DNA of 64,000 nt. Source: Brenneria rubrifaciens. Its GTDB lineage: Bacteria > Pseudomonadota > Gammaproteobacteria > Enterobacterales > Enterobacteriaceae. The notes below the pieces were generated by a model, which was not told the DNA's origin, did not search any database, and saw only the letters and a program-made list of their open reading frames with translations. The position numbers were made by a program, and so were the translations under genes. The stretch spans positions 1,364,001 through 1,428,000 of the forward strand of contig NZ_CP034035.1 in NCBI RefSeq assembly GCF_005484945.1, given 5' to 3'. Positions within the stretch are counted from its first letter, which is position 1. Every line of letters starts with the position of its first letter. Positions 459 through 61,907 of the stretch are shown piece after piece.

Positions 459-905
459 TTATGACTCAAATGCGTTGTAATGGTGTTTTTCAATGCAAGC
501 ACCGATGACTCTTTCATCTATTTCAAATGAACAGGAAAAGCAGATTGTTTTCCTTGCCAGACGTTTAACTTGAATGCGTAAATTAAGGTTGTGCCGCTAA
601 TTCGCTGCATGAATATCTTACCTGTTAGGGGGGCTGACGCTTTTTCTCGTGTTCTCGTGTGTGGCTGCCCCATTCATCGGTGGTGAAAAAAACCATATGA
701 AAAGGTTTTAACAAATCGAGACGTTTTCGGCAGGTCTCATCCGTGCGCGGACTAATTATATGGGCAACAATCTGTTTTCTTCTCGTATCACATGCATACC
801 AAAGCCAATGCTGCTGTTTTTTATTCTCCACGAATGACCATTGCTTATCCAGTTCACAAATCCGGGTGAGATCGTCATAGACGATGGGTTTGCTTGTTAC
901 TTGTG
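459..905 (-). pseudogene. insB: IS1 insB (transposase catalytic part), frameshifted
   Basis: The minus strand carries the InsB sequence in pieces. A frame covering 625-831 contains the InsB stretch KKQQHWLWYACDTRRKQIVAH and continues to the FFTTDEWG segment. It then runs into a wrong frame near 640, where GAGAACACGAGAA looks like a small local duplication. Near 600, QRI is followed by SGTT instead of ERHNLNL because one G is missing. The C-terminal part then resumes and ends at a TAA at 459-461. The truncated relative at 60761-61038 still has this C-terminal region in one frame, which makes both lesions clear. Confidence 0.8.
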
Positions 906-1175
906 GCGGCGCGAGTTTTTTAATGTGCTCATCACGGTGTTCATACTGATTTTCAGAACTCGTCCTGTATCCCTGACCCCGGAGCCATTAATCGCCATAT
1001 CGACAATTTTTTCTTTTGTTCCGGGCTTATGTGCGTTGTAACGGTAGTGAATCTGGAAAGTACGGCGACAATGTTGACAGTAATATCGGGAAAATCCAGC
1101 CTTTCCCGTGCCATGCTTACTAACGGTTTCTGTTTGCTGACAATATCGGCAGGCAACTTCAATAGTGACTGTCAT
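897..1175 (-). CDS. insA: IS1 InsA-type DNA-binding protein
   Basis: This 92-residue protein matches IS1 InsA. It has an N-terminal zinc-finger-like part with CRYC and YCQHC cysteine pairs around residues 10-36 (CRYCQQT, YYCQHCRRTFQ), followed by a helix-turn-helix with the InsA-like segments KIVDMAINGSGVRDTGR and NTVMSTLKNS near the C terminus. InsA alone binds the IS1 ends and represses transposition; it becomes part of the transposase only through frameshifting into insB. The frame is intact and ATG-initiated. Confidence 0.85.
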   Translation of the reverse strand: MTVTIEVACRYCQQTETVSKHGTGKAGFSRYYCQHCRRTFQIHYRYNAHKPGTKEKIVDMAINGSGVRDTGRVLKISMNTVMSTLKNSRRHK

Positions 1176-2002: not shown

Positions 2003-2749
2003 AGATAGTTTCTGACCGTTTTTTCATAACGGGTGGCAACCCGGCGGCACTCTTCTAAAAACCGAAACTTCTTTCAACCACATGGCGGGATTTGTATGAC
2101 TCCATGTCAATTTGACATCATCTGTCATTTGCTGATTTCTCATTGTTTTTTAAGAAAAAAACTTTTATCCCTTGTCTTTTCAAGGCGTTACGCAGCACTT
2201 GAGAGGAATACTCTTTATCAGCAAGAACGGCTTTTCCCCGACGTTTAGGGTAGCCGCCTTTACGGTTTAGGCCGATACCGTCCAGAAGCTGAAGTGCGTA
2301 CTGACTTTCATGGGCTTGTCCGTCTGTCGCCAGATGGATTTTGGTGCGATAACCGCCTCGTGAGCGATCCAGCGCATGAGCGTCAGCGATATCGGGATGT
2401 TTTTTTGAGCGCCTGTGGCGCAATGACTGGCGCGGATGTTACTGCCATCGAGTGATACCGCCGACCAGTCGAGGCAGTCATTTTCATCAACAATTGAAAG
2501 CAACCTGTTGAAAATAAGTTTGATAATTCCTGATTTCGACCAGCGATTGAAACGGATGTAAATCGTTTCACACCCTCCATAGCGCTCAGGCAAACCGCGC
2601 TACGGTGCGCCGAAGCAGAGTACTCCAAACATGCCGTTGATAATCTTGCGGTGTTCGACGTAAGGATGACCGGCTTTTTGAGAATGTTCAGAGAGAAGCT
2701 GAGGTGAAATTAGTTCCCATGCGACGTCAGGAAGTTCGTAACGAGCCAT
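2003..2749 (-). pseudogene. IS5-family transposase, multiply broken
   Basis: A minus-strand transposase of the IS5 family (IS427/IS1031-like DDE group) starts at 2749 with MARYELPDVAWELISPQLL. The tryptophan expected in GAPWRDLPERYG is a TAG at about 2600. The same frame continues through LDGSNIRASHCATGAQK, then shifts frame before KKHPDIADAHALDRSRGGY. After KRQGIKV the sequence decays again, with C-terminal traces (VVERSFGF, RVATRYEKT) as far as about 2003. The outer end near 2808 may be the terminal repeat (GTAGTGTCCCGC on the minus strand), but I did not find its partner. It cannot encode a working enzyme. Confidence 0.78.
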
Positions 2750-2933: not shown

Positions 2934-3158
2934 TTATTGACGGTAAGCGTGCTTGATTTGTTTGATCGTGTTTTCAAACACGGCGGCCTGCTCAGGGTCT
3001 GCCAACTGAGCAATATATCTTTCCATATTAATAATCACTTTGCCGGCATCTGCCTGGCCGATAGCTTTAAGCAAGAGTGTGACTGTTGCTTTCAGGCAGG
3101 TTACTTCGTGCGATAACGTTTCTACGGAAGGCGTAGTAGAAAAATCTAGATTGCCCAT
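2934..3158 (-). CDS. yecF: YecF family small protein (DUF2594)
   Basis: This 74-residue protein is clearly the enterobacterial YecF. The segments SHEVTCLKATVTLLLKAIGQADAG, AQLADPEQAAVF and the end KQIKHAYRQ follow E. coli YecF. No function is established for the family. It is predicted cytoplasmic with no signal peptide. The ATG is preceded by GAGGAG with good spacing. Its place next to uvrY, here divergent, is the conserved enterobacterial arrangement and supports the backbone assignment. Confidence 0.9.
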   Translation of the reverse strand: MGNLDFSTTPSVETLSHEVTCLKATVTLLLKAIGQADAGKVIINMERYIAQLADPEQAAVFENTIKQIKHAYRQ

Positions 3159-3823
3159 ATTTTCTCCTCAACAATAAACAGCATAAGGTGTTTTTAGTCA
3201 GCCAGTTACAGGTTGAATGACCTTGTTGCCAGCCTGATCAGATAGCGGCAAGTATAACATAATGCATATTAATGGCGGTGATTATTAATCAATAATCATT
3301 ATGTAATGGTTGTTTTTTATGCATTTAACTTATTTTTAGCCATATTTAATTCTCTGCTTTAATAGGTTAAATCGGCATTCAAATGTTTTTGGCTGTATAC
3401 ATAAAAGCTTCAACATGTATGTTTTTTTAGAGTGTGTTATTTATATTGGATGAGGATTTTCATGATAAGGTATTGATGTAATGGATACTTACAATAGTGT
3501 TTTTTTATTGACATGTTGAAATCAATGCCAATTGCATGCCATTGATTGGTATTGATTTTTTATTAATATCAATTACTATGCAAGCCATGAGTTCAGTGCG
3601 CTTCAAGTGATAATCTGGATGTTAAGAGTGTGATCAATATACGTGTTAAGCATAATAGTATATTGTTATCGTTAGACTTTGATATTGAATGCTTATTACT
3701 TCTTAACGTATTTAAAAATACATATTCTTATAAACAGTATTCATTATTTTTAGAAACCAACGTAGTATCACCTGCAAACGAATCTTTATGTAAGTGTTAC
3801 TTCCTTTTTTGGAGAATTATTCT
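3159..3823. other. AT-rich intergenic region between yecF and uvrY
   Basis: These 665 bases contain no credible gene. Near 3520-3575 the motif ATTGAT or ATCAAT occurs repeatedly: AATCAATG at 3520-3527 is mirrored by CATTGATT at 3540-3547, followed by TATTGAT and ATATCAAT. These dyads could be operator sites for uvrY, but no regulator can be named. GGAGAA at 3811-3816 is a plausible ribosome-binding site for the uvrY TTG start. Confidence 0.5.
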
Positions 3824-4480
3824 TTGATTAGCGTTTTTCTTGTTGATGACCATGAACTGGTGCGGGCAGGGATACGGTGCATTCTTGACGATATCAAAGG
3901 TCTTAAGGTTGTGGGTGAAGTGTCATGAGGTGAAGATGCCGTTAAATGGTGTCGTAGCAACGCTGTTGATGTTGTCTTGATGGACATGAATATGCCCGGA
4001 ATCGGTGGTCTTGAGGCGACGCGCAAAATTTTGCGATTTTCTCCTGATATAAAAGTAATTATGCTAACTATTTATACAGAGAATCCTTTACCTGCTAAAG
4101 TAATGCAGGCAGGGGCCGCTGGATACGTGAGTAAAGCCGCCGCCCCGCAGGAAGTTATCTGTGCCATTCGCGCTGTGCATGCGGGTAAACGCTATATCGC
4201 CTCGGATATTGCTCAGCAGATGGCATTAAGTCAGTTGGAGCCACAGACTGAGACCCCATTGGCGTGTCTGTCTGAGCGTGAATTGCAGATTATGCTAATG
4301 ATCACCAAAGGGCAAAAGGTCACTGAGATTTCAGACCAGTTGAACCTGAGTCCTAAAACGGTGAACAGCTATCGATATCGAATGTTCAGCAAGCTGAACA
4401 TCAGTGGCGATGTTGAGTTGACGCACCTTGCGATTCGCCACGGACTTTTTAATGCGGAGACATTGTTAAGTAGTGAGTGA
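3824..4480 (+). pseudogene. uvrY: uvrY (GacA-type response regulator) with in-frame TGA
   Basis: UvrY is the response regulator of the BarA-UvrY (GacS-GacA) system, which switches on the csrB/csrC small RNAs. The frame starts at TTG 3824 (LISVFLVDDHELVRAG), with GGAGAA upstream. Codon 35 at 3926-3928 is TGA, where E. coli has a cysteine (ASCGEDA becomes VS-stop-GEDA). The rest is intact: the phosphoacceptor segment VVLMDMNMPG, receiver end, and LuxR-type helix-turn-helix (LSERELQIMLMITKGQKV, LSPKTVNSYRYRMFSKLN). Restart at TTG 3977 would give 167 residues with the DNA-binding domain but without the acidic pocket DD. It overlaps uvrC by 8 bases. A sequencing error is the main alternative. Confidence 0.85.
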
Positions 4481-6305
4481 CAGTTTCGATGCTTCGGCAT
4501 TTCTAAAAACGGTAACCAGCCAGCCTGGGGTCTACCGCATGTATGATGCCGCGAAAACGGTGATCTACGTCGGTAAGGCAAAAGATTTAAAAAAACGACT
4601 TTCCAGCTATTTTCGCAGCAATGTTGCCAGCCGTAAAACGGAGGCACTGGTAAGAAGTATCAGGCAGATCGATGTGACGATCACGCATACTGAGACGGAA
4701 GCCTTGCTGCTCGAACATAACTATATCAAGCGTTATCAACCGCGCTACAACGTTTTGCTGCGTGATGATAAGTCTTATCCCATGATTTTTCTCAGTGCTG
4801 ACCAACACCCTCGGCTGGCCGTGCACCGTGGAGCCAAACACGCCAAAGGTGAGTATTTTGGGCCATTTCCAAATGGAAATGCTGTGCGTGAAACGTTGAT
4901 GCTGCTGCAAAAACTGTTTCCCGTGCGGCAATGCGAAAATAGCGTGTACCGCAATCGCTCTCGTCCTTGCCTGCAATATCAAATTGGTCGCTGTCTTGGA
5001 CCGTGTGTTTCGGGACTGGTGAGTGAAGATGACTATCAGCAACAAGTTGATTATGTCCGTCTATTTTTGTCTGGAAAAGATCAGCAGGTTCTTAACCAAC
5101 TGATAACAAAAATGGAAGCGGCCAGTCGTGCCCTGAAGTTTGAAGAAGCGGCGCGTACTCGCGATCAAATTCAGGCCGTCCGACGCGTGACGGAAAAACA
5201 GTTCGTCTCCGGTAATAGTGAAGACCTTGATGTTATCGGTGTGGCCTTCGAAGCCGGGATTGCGAGCGTGCACGTACTGTTTATTCGTCAGGGGAAAGTG
5301 TTGGGCAGTCGAAGCTATTTTCCGAAAGTCCCCGCCGGCACAGAATTAGGCGAAGTAGTGCAAACGTTTGTCGGGCAGTTTTATTTACAAGGGAGTATGG
5401 CCCGAACTTTACCTTCGGAAATTCTGCTTGATTTTATGCTGCCGGATAAAGAACTGCTGACTGATTCGTTAACCGATGTCGCTGGCCGAAAAGTCCAAAT
5501 CCAGACCAGGCCGCGTGGCGATCGCGCTCGATACCTGAAACTTGCCCGTACCAATGCTGCGACGGCATTGGTGACGAAGTTATCACAGCAATCTACAATT
5601 CACCAGCGCCTAACGGAGTTGGCCAAGGTTTTACAACTGCCTGAAATTAAGCGTATGGAGTGTTTTGATATTAGTCATACTATGGGTGAACAGACTGTGG
5701 CATCCTGTGTCGTGTTCGATAAAAATGGTCCGTTACGCTCAGAGTATCGCCGCTATAATATCAGTGGCATTACACCCGGTGATGATTATGCCGCGATGGC
5801 TCAGGTTCTCAAACGTCGATACGGTAAGGCATTGGATGACAAAAAAATTCCTGATGTGATTGTTATCGATGGGGGTAAAGGGCAATTGGGACAGGCGCAG
5901 GCTGTATTCGACTCACTACAGGTGCCTTGGGATAAGCGTAAGCCTTTAATGCTCGGTGTAGCGAAAGGCAGCGATCGTAAAGCTGGACTTGAAACACTTT
6001 TTTTTGAGTCGACAGGAGACGGTGTCGTGTTACCGTCTGACTCGCCAGCTTTGCACGTTATCCAGCATATTCGCGATGATTCTCACGATCACGCGATTGG
6101 CGGGCACCGCAAGAAAAGAGCTAAAGTTAAGAACACCAGTACATTAGAGTTCGTTGAGGGGGTTGGGCCCAAACGGCGGCAGGCTCTGCTGAAATATATG
6201 GGTGGACTACAACCATTGATGAACGCCAGCGTTGAGGAAATTGCAAATGTGCCGGGTATTTCACACGTATTGGCAGAAAAGATCTTCCATGCATTGAAAC
6301 ACTAG
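4473..6305 (+). CDS. uvrC: Excinuclease ABC subunit C
   Basis: UvrC makes both incisions around DNA lesions in nucleotide excision repair, acting with UvrA and UvrB. The 610-residue protein is full length. It has a GIY-YIG nuclease domain at residues 15-100 ([20 protein letters not shown]), a cysteine-rich segment ([13 protein letters not shown]), a UVR motif near 205-240 ([17 protein letters not shown]), an RNase H-like second nuclease domain ([27 protein letters not shown]) and a C-terminal helix-hairpin-helix ([18 protein letters not shown]). The GTG start overlaps the end of uvrY, as in other enterobacteria, so translation is probably coupled and a premature stop in uvrY might affect its expression. 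Confidence 0.97.
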
Positions 6306-6363: not shown

Positions 6364-6912
6364 ATGCAATTTAATATACCGACGTTGCTTACCTTGTTTC
6401 GTGTTGCTTTAATCCCGTTTTTTGTGCTGGCGTTTTACCTTCCATTCGTCTGGGCACCGATAGTGTGCGCACTGATTTTTGTTTTTGCCGCCGTCACAGA
6501 CTGGTTTGATGGATTCCTGGCTCGCCGTTGGAAACAAACCACACGATTTGGCGCCTTTCTCGATCCGGTAGCGGATAAAGTGATGGTAGCGGTTGCGTTG
6601 GTTTTGGTTGCCGAGCACTACCATTCCTGGTGGATCACGTTGCCAGCGGCAACGATGATTGCACGCGAAATCATCATTTCTGCATTACGTGAATGGATGG
6701 CTGAAATAGGTAAACGCAGTAGCGTCGCGGTTTCATGGATAGGAAAAGTAAAAACCACTGCCCAAATGATGGCGCTGGTAGCTCTGTTGTGGCGACCAGA
6801 ACGCTTAGTTGAAGGGGCTGGCGTTATTGCTTTGTATATCGCTGCAATACTAACTTTCTGGTCAATGTTTCAATATCTAAACGCTGCCCGGCATGACTTG
6901 TTTGCACCTTAA
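6364..6912 (+). CDS. pgsA: CDP-diacylglycerol--glycerol-3-phosphate 3-phosphatidyltransferase
   Basis: PgsA makes phosphatidylglycerophosphate, the first committed step to phosphatidylglycerol and cardiolipin, in the inner membrane. The 182-residue protein carries the CDP-alcohol phosphatidyltransferase motif DG(X2)AR(X8)G(X3)D(X3)D between DGFLARRW and FLDPVADK at about residues 56-78. It has several hydrophobic segments before and after the motif. It follows uvrC by 58 bases, the normal enterobacterial order, and is probably cotranscribed with it. Confidence 0.97.
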
Positions 6913-7126: not shown

Positions 7127-7202
<76 letters not shown>

Positions 7203-7236
7203 ATATCGCAGCGATAGCTGAACAGGTTAAAGGCAA

Positions 7237-7310
7237 GGCGCGTTGGCAGAGTGGCCATGCAGCGGATTGCAAATCCGCCTACCTCGGTTCGACTCCGGGA
7301 CGCGCCTCCA
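7237..7310 (+). tRNA. cysT: tRNA-Cys (anticodon GCA)
   Basis: The acceptor stem GGCGCGT pairs with ACGCGCC, the anticodon region GGATTGCAAATCC gives GCA, and the T arm contains GGTTCGACTCC. CCA is encoded. It is second in the operon. Confidence 0.95.
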
Positions 7311-7318
7311 ATATCTAA

Positions 7319-7405
7319 GCCCGGGTGGTGGAATCGGTAGACACAAGGGATTTAAAATCCCTCGGCGTACGCGCTGTGCGGGTTCAAGTCCCGCCCCGGG
7401 CACCA
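7319..7405 (+). tRNA. leuZ: tRNA-Leu (anticodon TAA)
   Basis: This is a class II tRNA of 87 bases. The acceptor stem GCCCGGG pairs with CCCGGGC, the D arm is GTGGTGGAATCGGTAGACAC, the anticodon stem GGGAT/ATCCC encloses TAA, a long variable arm (CGGCGTACGCGCTG) follows, and the T arm contains GGTTCAAGTCC. CCA is encoded. Its 3' part is a classic integration site for P4-type integrases, and remains of such an integrase begin 204 bases downstream. Confidence 0.95.
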
Positions 7406-7608: not shown

Positions 7609-8848
7609 ATGGCACTCGCGGATATCCAGTTAGGTTCAGTAAAACCGGAGGAGAAGGCCTGTAAACTAACTGATGGCAACGGAATGTTTTTTCTGGTTGA
7701 TCCCAATAGGTCTAAATATTGGCGCTTACGCTATCGTTAGGATGGCAAAGAAAAGACGCTGGCATTAGGTGTCTACCCCGACGTTTCCCTTTCTGAAGCG
7801 CGTCAGAAACGCGACGATGCGCGAAAACTGATAGCCGCTGGCGTTGATCCTGACAAGCACATATAAGGCAGTCAAAATCCAACAGCAGGATGATGAGCAA
7901 ACCTTCGAAGTTGTGGCTCGCGCCTGGCACGCCGACAACAAGAAGTGGTCGGAATCCCATCCTTAAAAAGCCTAAGCCACAATATCTTTCCTGCTATCGG
8001 CGGCATACATATCGCGGCTCTGAAAACGCGTGGCCTGTTGGCGCCGATCAAAAACGTTGAACGTTCAGGACGTTTAGAAGTTGCCAAGCGCCTAAAGCAA
8101 CGCGTGACGGCCATCATGACCCATGCGGTACAAAACGATCTGATTGACTCTAACCCTGCGCAGGATATGGCAGGGGCGATTAGCCCGGCAAGGTAGAGCA
8201 TCGCCCGGCGTTGGAGCTCAAACGTTTGCCTGAACTTCTGGGCCGTATCGATGGCTACAAAGGCCGTGAGTTTACCAAATGGTTAATAAGCATTTCCCTC
8301 TGATTTTTATCCGCTCAAGTGAATTCCTTTTTGCCCGCTGGCCGGAAATCGATTTCGAGCGCGCTTTATGGACGATACCTTCGGAGCGTGAACCCATTCC
8401 CGGCGTGAAGTTTTCCGAACGCGGTTCGAAAATGTGCACATCGCAACTTTTTCAGCTTAGTCGTCAGGCAGTGAAGATCCTTAAAAATATTAAAGAGGTG
8501 AGCGGGCATTGTGAACTGATCTTCATTGGCGATCACGCGTCACGAAAACCGGTCAGCGAGGGGACGGCAAACAATGCACTGCAAACCATGGCTACGACAC
8601 TAAAACGGAAGTTTGCGGCCACGGCCTTCGCACCATGGCCCGTAGCTCGTTGATCGAATTGGGATTATGGTCGCGGGATGCGGAAGATGAGCCATTAGGA
8701 ACGTAACGGTGTCCAGGCCGCGCATATCAACAAGGCTGAACACCTGGACGAACGGCGGCCGATGCTGCAATGGTGGGCTGATTTTCTTGATGCGAATCGG
8801 GAGAGGTCGGTGAGTCCGTTTAATTTTGGTAAGTTGACGGTGGGTTAA
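7609..8848 (+). pseudogene. P4-type tyrosine integrase, multiply broken
   Basis: The sequence begins MALADIQLGSVKPEEKACKL at an ATG with AAGGA upstream and follows the Arm-DNA-binding/DUF4102 N terminus of P4-family integrases. Lesions visible are a TAG after WRLRYR (7738), a stop and frameshift near 7864, a further shift before NIFPAIGGIHIAALK near 7970, and more breaks near 8195, 8310 and 8640. The catalytic domain is traceable in pieces (ARWPEIDFERALWTIPSERE, ISPAR, RNGVQAAHINKAEHLDERR) to a TAA at 8846-8848. Such integrases insert islands at tRNA 3' ends, and tRNA-Leu is immediately upstream. It cannot encode an active enzyme. Confidence 0.88.
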
Positions 8849-9128: not shown

Positions 9129-9989
9129 TTATCGCACGCCGCCGGTAATCATCGGCAACAGATAGTGGCAGGGGTAATAGCGTGTCATGCCGCGCTGATG
9201 CAACTGCCAGCCAAGTTTCTCCACATCGTGTTTATGCCTGTCGAGCAGCAATCCCACCACGCTGCCGCTGTGGGCGACGTTCAAACCATACAGACCGCCA
9301 TCTTCAACCAGCGTCATTAAATCGCTGAAAGCGGGCTTGGCCAGTATCTGCTGGCTGGCGATCGCGCTCAACGTGCAGGCTTCGCCGAGTCGGGCGTTAT
9401 CCTGCGTCTTTGCCGCTGCGCAAAACAGCCGCCAGGCCTTTTCCAGCGCATCGGCATTGCTCAGTAACGACGACTGGCGATCGAATCGGTGATAGTCCGC
9501 GGTATTCAGCGTGTGCGGGCTTTCCAGCAACAGAATATCCACCGACGGCTGCCAGTCGCAGGCAATTTGCGTATGGGCAGTTTGATGGTCGAACAGCGTT
9601 AACCGGCTAAACAGCGTGCTGTCGGTGGGCTCCAGTTGAACACACAGCATGGCGAGCGTTGCATCATCCAGCGTGACGCCAAGATGACGGGCCGTTGCCT
9701 GTGCGGTGGCAGCGATATCGGCAGTGCTGCTGGCCATGCCTTTGGCGACCGGAATGGTGGAGGAGAATTCAATGCGCAAACCGCGTCCGGTATCCGCAGG
9801 GAGACCGAGGCGGGCAATCACGACATTCAGCATTTGCCGCATGCGTGGGCGCTCGGTACTGGCTGGCTGACCGTCAGTGACGGAGACATGGCTGAACCAG
9901 TCCACCGGGCAGGAGATCAGCTTCTCTCCGCCGAGAATCCATCCCTGAATCAATTCACCGCAGGACGCAGGGCAGCGAGCGTCAGCCAT
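9129..9989 (-). CDS. pduX: L-threonine kinase (PduX-type GHMP kinase)
   Basis: PduX phosphorylates L-threonine to threonine-3-phosphate, the substrate of CobD, for the aminopropanol linker of cobalamin. The 286-residue protein is of GHMP-kinase type. It opens with ARCPASCGELIQGWI and has the ATP-binding glycine/serine loop PVAKGMASSTADIAAT near residue 80 and a C-terminal LNVAHSGSVVGLLLD segment. The start at 9989 is chosen because its ATG overlaps the cobD stop by 8 bases and matches the family N terminus; a longer frame to 10040 would lie within cobD. It is downstream of cobD in a probable operon. Confidence 0.88.
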   Translation of the reverse strand: MADARCPASCGELIQGWILGGEKLISCPVDWFSHVSVTDGQPASTERPRMRQMLNVVIARLGLPADTGRGLRIEFSSTIPVAKGMASSTADIAATAQATARHLGVTLDDATLAMLCVQLEPTDSTLFSRLTLFDHQTAHTQIACDWQPSVDILLLESPHTLNTADYHRFDRQSSLLSNADALEKAWRLFCAAAKTQDNARLGEACTLSAIASQQILAKPAFSDLMTLVEDGGLYGLNVAHSGSVVGLLLDRHKHDVEKLGWQLHQRGMTRYYPCHYLLPMITGGVR

Positions 9990-11055
9990 GACCGAATACC
10001 TGATGCAGCGCGGCGACCAGCCGCTGATTATCGACGTCACTTTTGATGGCGACCCGATAATCGCTGGCCGTCAGGCCGGGATAGTTGGCACAGGCGCGGA
10101 TCAGCAAACGATGTTCCAGCAGCGCTTGCTGAAGGGGAATTTCCGGGTGCAGGCAGCGCAGGAAGATATAATTGGCGGACGGTTGCCACACGTGCAGTTC
10201 GGGCATCGCGCTCAGTTCCCGGTAGAGCCAGCGTTGCGCCTCTGCCAGCCAGCGGTAGGTTGCCGCGATATAAGACGTATCGTTCAGCATGATTTCCCCG
10301 GCCAACGCAGCAAAGGCGTTGATCGTCCACGGCTCCTGTGATTGTTTCATGGCCTGGATCGCCGTCTGATCGGCGCTGAGCAGATAACCCAGCCGCAAAC
10401 CGGGGATCGCGAAAAACTTGGTCAGTGAGCGCAGAATAAACAGGCGGGGAAACGCGGCCAACTGCGGGATCAGGCCCGGTGCGCCAGGCAGGAAATCGAT
10501 AAACGCCTCATCGACGATCGGCGCGGTATTGCGCTGGTGGCAGCGTTCAACAATGGCTTGCAGCAGCGAACTGTCAGGCATTAGCCCCGTGGGATTATTG
10601 GGGGTGGCGATAAACAGACAGTCATAGTGCGTTTTATCCAGCGCGGCCAGCAGTCGGGTATCAGGCTGAAACCCATCTTCCGCCGACATGATGTATTCAT
10701 CAATGGCGCAGCCCGCACGCTGCAAGGCCCGGCGGTATTCCGCGAACCCCGGCGTCAGCAGCAGTGCCCGCCGTGGTTGAAGATACTGCACCACGGCATA
10801 AATCAATCCTGTCGCCCCGTTGCCGGCCATAATTTGCGCCGGCGGACAGCCATGAGCACGGGCGAGGGCGGCATGAAGCTCACGGTATTCCACGTCGGGG
10901 TAACGCTCGGCAAGCTCAAGCCGGCTGGCGATCGCCGTTTTCAGCGACGCGGGCATACCCAGTGGATTGATATTGGCGCTGAAATCGATAATCTCATCGG
11001 CATTCACGCCGATGTTGAGCGCCATTTCCAGCACATTACCGCCATGTTCGCCCAT
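9982..11055 (-). CDS. cobD: Threonine-phosphate decarboxylase
   Basis: CobD is a PLP enzyme that converts threonine-3-phosphate to (R)-1-amino-2-propanol phosphate, which CbiB attaches to adenosylcobyric acid. The 357-residue protein has DFSANINPLGMP near the N terminus, FIATPNNPTGLMP, the PLP lysine in SLTKFFAIPGLRLGY, and a C-terminal RACANYPGLTASDYRVAIKS; all match Salmonella CobD. The start at 11055 (MGEHGGNVLEM) has AGGA 6 bases upstream and fits the family; a longer frame to 11127 has no homology in its extra part. It overlaps the kinase gene by 8 bases. Confidence 0.93.
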   Translation of the reverse strand: MGEHGGNVLEMALNIGVNADEIIDFSANINPLGMPASLKTAIASRLELAERYPDVEYRELHAALARAHGCPPAQIMAGNGATGLIYAVVQYLQPRRALLLTPGFAEYRRALQRAGCAIDEYIMSAEDGFQPDTRLLAALDKTHYDCLFIATPNNPTGLMPDSSLLQAIVERCHQRNTAPIVDEAFIDFLPGAPGLIPQLAAFPRLFILRSLTKFFAIPGLRLGYLLSADQTAIQAMKQSQEPWTINAFAALAGEIMLNDTSYIAATYRWLAEAQRWLYRELSAMPELHVWQPSANYIFLRCLHPEIPLQQALLEHRLLIRACANYPGLTASDYRVAIKSDVDNQRLVAALHQVFGHG

Positions 11056-11145
11056 GATATCCTGATGATCTCCCTGATTTTGATAAGGGCAGCATAACAT
11101 AAGCGAGGAAATGGCCGTCAACGGCATGTGACCGCAGGCAGGTCT

Positions 11146-61201: not shown

Positions 61202-61420
61202 TTAGTTGATCCTGCGACATAAAAATTTGTTTTTTATCACCCCATCGAAGAAACGGCCTTTTGACACCACTGCATCAGAAATAAATTTCCTATAGGTGCG
61301 CTCAGAAACATCAACATATTGATAGATCTCTTTATTTTGAAATTCAATTTCAAGAATACGATTCTCTGGGTCATAGCCAATCGAACGAATCCTTGATGAT
61401 GATACGGGTTGCCGCTGCAA
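61202..61420 (-). CDS. KTSC-domain protein
   Basis: This 72-residue protein is mostly a KTSC domain: VSSSRIRSIGYDPENRILEIEF, a YQYVDVSERTYRKF middle, and SKGRFFDGVIKNKF. KTSC domains occur as small stand-alone proteins or at the ends of larger ones; their function is unknown, although nucleic-acid binding has been suggested. The start appears to be TTG at 61420, with AGGG 8 bases upstream. It is isolated between the IS1 fragment and dsrB. Confidence 0.75.
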   Translation of the reverse strand: MQRQPVSSSRIRSIGYDPENRILEIEFQNKEIYQYVDVSERTYRKFISDAVVSKGRFFDGVIKNKFLCRRIN

Positions 61421-61907
61421 TGCTTATCCCTCATTTGAGTTGAATGCCGAATAGGACTATAAAGGATTTCAAGCACGCTGTGTTGTTGATGTTCATGCTT
61501 ATCAGTCGAAGGTGTACCATAGCTTGGGCTTGTGGCTTAGCAAAATTGATACTAGCAGGGTGAGTCTGATAAAAATTTGAACAAGGCCGCATAAGCGGGC
61601 CGATTAGCAGGGGTTTTAGTTGCTCAACAGGTCATCATTCTGGTGCATATTCAATTCGTATCGACCATTGGCTAAACCTTATAAAATGCGTCGTCAGCAG
61701 ATATAATCAGGCACTCATAATTAAGATGTCCGCTGTAGAGGGCGAGCCTGCGTTGATGGTGGTTGCTACTGTTTCGCCATTTTGGGGTAGATGCGGTGAT
61801 CCTGAATTTTTTCTCTGAGCCGCTCAATTAGAGCGTAAGCCGCAGCTTTTGGCGTTTCGACTAATACCACTATGAACTTTTGATGTACTTTTATTGAGAT
61901 AAAGATA
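61421..61907. other. Intergenic region between the KTSC gene and dsrB
   Basis: Most of these 487 bases show no gene. On the minus strand at 61766-61870 a frame of 34 codons from a GTG is composed like a real protein end; it is listed separately. A repeat or att site was looked for and not found. Confidence 0.45.
61766..61870 (-). CDS. Doubtful 34-residue protein or gene remnant
   Basis: From GTG 61870 the minus strand encodes VVLVETPKAAAYALIERLRE and ends YPKMAKQ before TAG at 61766-61768. The composition is helix-like and protein-like. There is no good ribosome-binding site, and I recognise no family. It could be a small protein divergent from dsrB or the C-terminal relic of a larger gene. 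Confidence 0.22.
   Translation of the reverse strand: MVLVETPKAAAYALIERLREKIQDHRIYPKMAKQ

What the first reader, a model, noticed from the sequence alone, without database searches (positions are those of the whole stretch)
3926..3928. In-frame TGA inactivates or reshapes the GacA-type regulator UvrY
Codon 35 of an otherwise clean uvrY is TGA where a cysteine is conserved in E. coli. The rest of the gene, including phosphoacceptor and DNA-binding domain, shows no other lesion, so the change is recent, an error, or tolerated because a restart at TTG 3977 makes a shorter protein. UvrY normally drives csrB and thereby CsrA control of virulence, biofilm and flhDC. Loss would reset these traits. 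uvrC overlaps uvrY and could suffer polar effects.
Basis: partly seen in the sequence, partly recalled or inferred. Interest (0 to 1): 0.72.

Follow-up and report, generated by a model that had tools for sequence, protein, structure and literature searches.

The report
Recent nonsense mutation in uvrY regulator
A Brenneria bacterium carries one stop codon early in uvrY, the gene for a global on-switch of the Gac/Csr pathway, while the parts of that pathway that were checked look intact; this is most likely a recent, strain-level loss of a kind well known in other bacteria.

Summary
TGA 3926-3928 is in-frame codon 35 of uvrY (TTG 3824 to TGA 4478-4480), a single-copy gene in a one-contig, 4.03-Mb Brenneria genome. 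Intact copies exist in the 8 other genomes held for the genus. Of 150 uvrY matches listed (179 of 295 genomes matched; 29 not listed), only this one has an internal stop. Besides the stop, the gene's private changes are 6 synonymous and 0 non-synonymous, so the lesion is young, or it is an error. BarA, CsrA, CsrB and two UvrY/GacA-type boxes before csrB are present. In 200 kb of the same genome, 107 conserved ORFs showed no clear gene-body lesion. Selenocysteine is unlikely: no SelB over cut-off, no marked hairpin. A restart at ATG 3980 is possible but would give only a fragment without the first half of the receiver. The best reading is a recent loss-of-function allele, probably of strain level, comparable to gac/barA losses reported in culture. 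Reads and sister strains were not available. It is ordinary in kind and of modest interest.

The parts
3824..4480 (+). uvrY (GacA/SirA-type response regulator), interrupted by a stop at codon 35
   Evidence: single match in own genome
3926..3928 (+). in-frame TGA, codon 35
   Evidence: 1 TGA inside
3824..3925 (+). N-terminal piece, 34 codons (first part of the receiver domain)
   Evidence: no Pfam hit on its own
3927..3980 (+). Shine-Dalgarno-like stretch 3927-3933 (judged by eye), then a 14-codon +1-frame ORF from ATG 3936 to TGA 3978-3980, whose stop overlaps ATG 3980
   Evidence: sequence; same ORF and overlap in 7 of 16 relatives with open uvrY
3980..4480 (+). possible restart product, 166 aa: second half of the receiver (profile 48-110 of 111) and full LuxR/GerE HTH
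4473..6305 (+). uvrC, intact 610 aa, start overlaps uvrY stop
6364..6912 (+). pgsA (named from annotated syntenic records)

Best explanation
A recent single-codon nonsense mutation has cut UvrY to a 34-residue N-terminal peptide in this Brenneria isolate. BarA, CsrA, CsrB and the csrB upstream boxes are present. The most likely consequence (inferred) is that BarA has no working partner, csrB transcription falls, CsrA stays freer, and Gac/Csr-controlled traits shift. The lesion is most likely of strain level, perhaps selected in laboratory culture or in the host, as described for gac/barA mutants elsewhere. Shown here: the stop, open copies in relatives, partners present, no sign of relaxed evolution. 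Inferred: loss of function, the physiological effect, and strain-level rather than species-level spread.
For: Stop in frame. The 8 other genomes held for the genus have an open uvrY. 6 synonymous and 0 non-synonymous private changes besides the stop, against 36-48 non-synonymous expected if the whole branch were neutral, which puts the stop at under about 6-8% of the branch (rough bound). BarA 929 aa with sCache_4, HAMP, HisKA, HATPase, receiver and Hpt. CsrB over the gathering score, with 19 GGA and two GacA-type boxes upstream. CsrA present. No clear gene-body lesion in 107 conserved ORFs from 200 kb. Precedent: GacA loss mutants said to arise often in culture and in nature (PMC12482163, passages); barA mutations in the Salmonella lineages evolved in LB (PMC5933015, passages).
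Against: No raw reads and no second genome of the species were available, so an error cannot be excluded. Nothing shows that the phenotype changed. Residue differences at positions 19 and 33, shared with some other Brenneria, could also be changes on this branch; counting both would loosen the age bound to about 15% (my arithmetic).
Confidence: 0.72

Rival explanations
1. Sequencing or assembly error at one base; the organism has an intact uvrY.
For: The gene shows no other sign of decay (0 private non-synonymous changes), and the lesion is the only one among the 150 listed uvrY matches. No reads were available.
Against: The genome is one contig, rated 100% complete. No clear gene-body lesion in 107 conserved ORFs from 200 kb, so the sequence does not look error-rich. 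A substitution error would have to fall at a site that makes a stop.
Confidence: 0.15
2. Translation restarts downstream. Ribosomes ending at TGA 3926 enter the 14-codon ORF at ATG 3936 behind a Shine-Dalgarno-like stretch, end on TGA 3978-3980 and restart on the overlapping ATG 3980. The product is a 166-aa fragment with an HTH and half a receiver, which might bind DNA without phosphorylation. Translation into uvrC would also be kept going.
For: The sequence has a Shine-Dalgarno-like stretch across the stop (by eye), ATG 3936, and a stop overlapping ATG 3980. The GerE HTH is complete in the fragment.
Against: The +1 ORF with the overlap also occurs in 7 of 16 relatives with open uvrY, so it need not have evolved for this. 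The fragment lacks residues 1-52, including the acidic pair at 8-9 (role in the phosphoacceptor pocket recalled), so it cannot be a normal receiver.
Confidence: 0.1
3. The TGA is read through or recoded (selenocysteine or suppression), giving full-length UvrY.
For: TGA stands at a position that is usually cysteine, the classic setting for selenocysteine; the gene shows no decay.
Against: No SelB match over cut-off in 9 of 9 Brenneria genomes, while the search is over the cut-off in 2 of 14 control genomes. No unusual hairpin after the TGA (z -0.83; 37 of 200 shuffles fold as well). The position also tolerates T, N, S and R. Suppressor tRNAs were not searched for.
Confidence: 0.03

Closest known systems
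UvrY/SirA/GacA response regulators of Enterobacterales (BarA-UvrY-CsrB-CsrA pathway)
   Same: Receiver plus LuxR-type HTH, phosphoacceptor at codon 54, TTG start, position directly before uvrC and pgsA, partners BarA, CsrB and CsrA present
   Different: Interrupted at codon 35
Spontaneous gacA/gacS and barA loss mutants in Pseudomonas and in laboratory-evolved Salmonella
   Same: A lesion in the same pathway, with the other parts checked left intact and no long decay
   Different: Here it is seen only in a deposited genome of a Brenneria; when and where it arose is not known
gacA deletion in the woody-host pathogen Pseudomonas savastanoi (PMC10875052)
   Same: GacA pathway lost in a pathogen of woody plants; gacA next to uvrC, with reduced uvrC expression reported
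   Different: An engineered mutant of another genus; effects there need not carry over

Membership tests
UvrY/GacA/SirA response regulator | N-terminal receiver domain (Response_reg) | tested here: inconclusive
   In the piece after the stop the profile is found over positions 31-110 of 111; the first 34 codons are cut off by the TGA and give no hit alone
UvrY/GacA/SirA response regulator | C-terminal LuxR/GerE HTH | tested here: met
   PF00196, E 6.2e-20, above cut-off
UvrY/GacA/SirA response regulator | Located immediately before uvrC (and pgsA) | tested here: met
UvrY/GacA/SirA response regulator | Partners BarA, CsrB and CsrA in the genome | tested here: met
UvrY/GacA/SirA response regulator | Phosphorylated by BarA and activates csrB | not testable with these tools
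   needs experiment; phosphotransfer shown for Shewanella in PMC3171408 (passages)
Loss-of-function (nonsense) allele | Stop within the gene, absent from relatives | tested here: met
   the only one of 150 listed matches; 0 of 108 relative rows with an early stop
Loss-of-function (nonsense) allele | Confirmed in reads and absence of protein | not testable with these tools
   no reads, no proteomics
Old pseudogene | Relaxed selection, further lesions | tested here: not met
   6 synonymous, 0 non-synonymous private changes; one stop and one unbroken match over the whole frame
Selenoprotein | SelB in the genome | tested here: not met
   0 of 9 Brenneria over cut-off
Selenoprotein | SECIS-like hairpin after the TGA | tested here: not met
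   folding z -0.83; folding energy only, no SECIS model was run

The most novel reading that the evidence does not exclude
The stop is fixed in this Brenneria species and was selected: the lineage has given up BarA-UvrY control, or keeps only a receiver-less UvrY fragment made by termination-reinitiation that binds the csrB boxes without a signal, so that Gac/Csr output is set to one level for life in its woody host.
Probability: 0.06. Interest if true: 0.55.

Novelty: new member of a known kind. Interest (0 to 1): 0.22.

Why it matters
If real, the sequenced isolate is a natural uvrY mutant, and results obtained with it on motility, biofilm, enzymes or virulence may not represent the species. 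It would also add a Brenneria case to the repeated loss of Gac-type regulators in plant-associated bacteria. If it is an error, the database entry needs a flag.

Tried and rejected
Selenocysteine/recoding: judged unlikely. General genome decay or poor sequence as the cause: 150 ORFs from 200 kb of G001 were compared with 200 kb of this genome. 107 had a homologue at the thresholds used (at least 70% identity and 60% coverage), 43 had none and were not judged, 6 were flagged for stops and 3 more as 'short' matches. Of the six, five have the stop before the conserved domain (over-extended starts) or after it; the sixth has two stops and no Pfam match and is probably not a gene. The three short matches were not followed. 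The reverse comparison flagged 5 of 109 ORFs in G001, plus one short; four of the five were looked at and have the stop near an end of the ORF or a weak, gapped alignment. Second uvrY copy: none found (one match each). Sister strains: only one genome per species is held, so no test was possible. Promoter scan around uvrY: 1 site found against 5.2 in shuffles, on the other strand. PDB search with the B. roseae protein gave VraR, NarL and RcsB types, no UvrY/GacA entry by name in the 60 of 210 rows shown; no structure was predicted. CsrC was not searched. Literature: 'Brenneria' with 'uvrY' gave 2 papers; 'Brenneria' with 'gacA' gave 20, of which 10 were listed. No title or passage that I saw reports a uvrY lesion in Brenneria; of these papers I saw passages only of PMC5789699 (lists UvrY in a table of its oak decline data) and PMC7912708, otherwise the listing. 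The 8 papers naming B. rubrifaciens were seen in the listing, one (PMC9730526) in passages. Further searches, listing only apart from the papers cited. PMC12724241: abstract and section list only, not used.

Full report
What is there. The window is bases 1,364,001-1,428,000 of a single 4,028,093-base contig. Eight other genomes are held for the same genus. The five best named matches to the piece of uvrY after the stop are all Brenneria, with B. roseae LMG 27714 first. uvrY runs from TTG 3824 to TGA 4478-4480, directly before uvrC (GTG 4473, 610 aa) and pgsA (6364-6912), as in annotated enterobacterial records. Codon 35, at 3926-3928, is TGA. The gene is single copy.

Is it exceptional? In one search, recounted, I lined up uvrY from 108 relative rows (two rows of the window's own genome set aside, L029 without uvrY; 103 distinct sequences). 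None has an early stop; the first stop is at codon 214-221. Position 35 is cysteine in 103 and T, N, S, S or R in five. In one search, 295 genomes of the same family, drawn evenly from a larger group, were searched with the B. roseae protein. 179 matched at E 1e-70, 150 matches were listed (hand count), and one, the window's own, has an internal stop. The 29 unlisted matches were not seen, and a badly broken copy elsewhere could have missed the E-value limit.

How old? Counting bases at which this genome alone differs from eight other Brenneria that agree, uvrY has 6 synonymous and 0 non-synonymous changes besides the stop; uvrC has 18 and 12 (the uvrC count is disturbed near its end by a frameshift in G007). 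With the codon make-up at those sites, a neutral branch with 6 synonymous changes should show 36-48 non-synonymous ones, so the stop can cover at most about 6-8% of the branch (a simple Poisson bound that takes the 6 as exact). Residues 19 and 33 differ from B. roseae but are shared with some other Brenneria; counting both as new here would loosen the bound to about 15%.

Is the rest of the pathway there? BarA is a 929-aa protein with sCache_4, HAMP, HisKA, HATPase, receiver and Hpt domains. CsrA is present. CsrB is over the gathering score and has 19 GGA motifs. Upstream of it lie two boxes that match a recalled 18-base GacA/UvrY consensus at 16 and 14 positions; the best box of the other eight Brenneria matches at 15-18. 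None of these parts shows a lesion. CsrC was not tested.

Error or decay? I compared 200 kb of this genome with 200 kb of G001. Of 150 ORFs, 107 had a homologue at the thresholds; 6 were flagged for stops and 3 as short matches. Five of the six stops lie before or after the conserved domain and the sixth ORF has no Pfam match; the short matches were not followed. So no clear gene-body lesion was found, and the core looks neither error-rich nor decaying, although transposase pieces and integrase fragments lie near uvrY. A single-base error remains possible because no reads were available.

What could the cell still make? The stop leaves 34 residues. In-frame restart codons are TTG 3977, ATG 3980 and later ones. 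A Shine-Dalgarno-like stretch at 3927-3933 (by eye), ATG 3936 and a 14-codon ORF whose stop overlaps ATG 3980 would make a termination-reinitiation chain. The same small ORF and overlap occur in 7 of 16 relatives whose uvrY is open, so the arrangement follows from the codons and is no sign of design. The product would hold the second half of the receiver and the full HTH. It could perhaps bind DNA but not act as a normal phosphorylation-controlled switch; this is inference. Selenocysteine is made unlikely by the lack of SelB over cut-off in 9 of 9 Brenneria and of a marked hairpin.

Consequences. Phosphotransfer from BarA to residue 54 of UvrY has been shown in Shewanella (PMC3171408, passages). 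In Yersinia pseudotuberculosis BarA-UvrY represses biofilm through CsrB (PMC6153318, title, abstract start and passages). Loss of GacA is described as frequent in culture and in nature in Pseudomonas (PMC12482163, passages), and barA mutations were found in the Salmonella lineages evolved in LB (PMC5933015, passages). In the olive pathogen P. savastanoi a gacA mutant made larger tumours but was less competitive, and uvrC expression fell; the same paper notes that uvrC was unaffected by a gacA deletion in another Pseudomonas, and that gacA mutants of several bacteria, Erwinia carotovora among them, were less UV tolerant (PMC10875052, passages). These are precedents, not tests of this organism.

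Verdict. A real-looking, isolated, young nonsense allele of uvrY, most likely of strain level and loss-of-function. It is known in kind, new as an instance as far as my searches show, and in need of read-level confirmation.

Noticed in passing
window 7127-63712: Variable region after pgsA: between the tRNA Gly-Cys-Leu cluster (7127-7405) and 63712 no ORF (100 aa or more) of the fetched stretches of G001 or G006 matches at 60% identity or more, except one 62% match at 61374-61598. The flanking genes lie about 57 kb apart here, about 42 kb in G001 and about 8 kb in G006, which suggests an island; integrase-like fragments lie at 7945-8653.
   Followed up: partly
window 897-1175 (-), 2118-2423 (-): Transposase pieces upstream of uvrY: IS1 InsA-type and a DDE_Tnp_1 fragment.
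   Followed up: no
window 2934-3158 (-): DUF2594 protein over its full profile, divergent from uvrY.
   Followed up: no
L010 (G007): uvrC of another Brenneria genome seems to have a one-base deletion near codon 578, giving stops and an altered C-terminus.
   Followed up: no
window 3518-3559: Long inverted repeat (17 pairs, 3 of them G-C) about 265 bases upstream of the uvrY start, listed as terminator-like.
   Followed up: no
window 9129-11127 (-): Two overlapping ORFs that look by eye like a PduX-type kinase and a CobD-type aminotransferase; not tested by any search beyond the ORF list.
   Followed up: no
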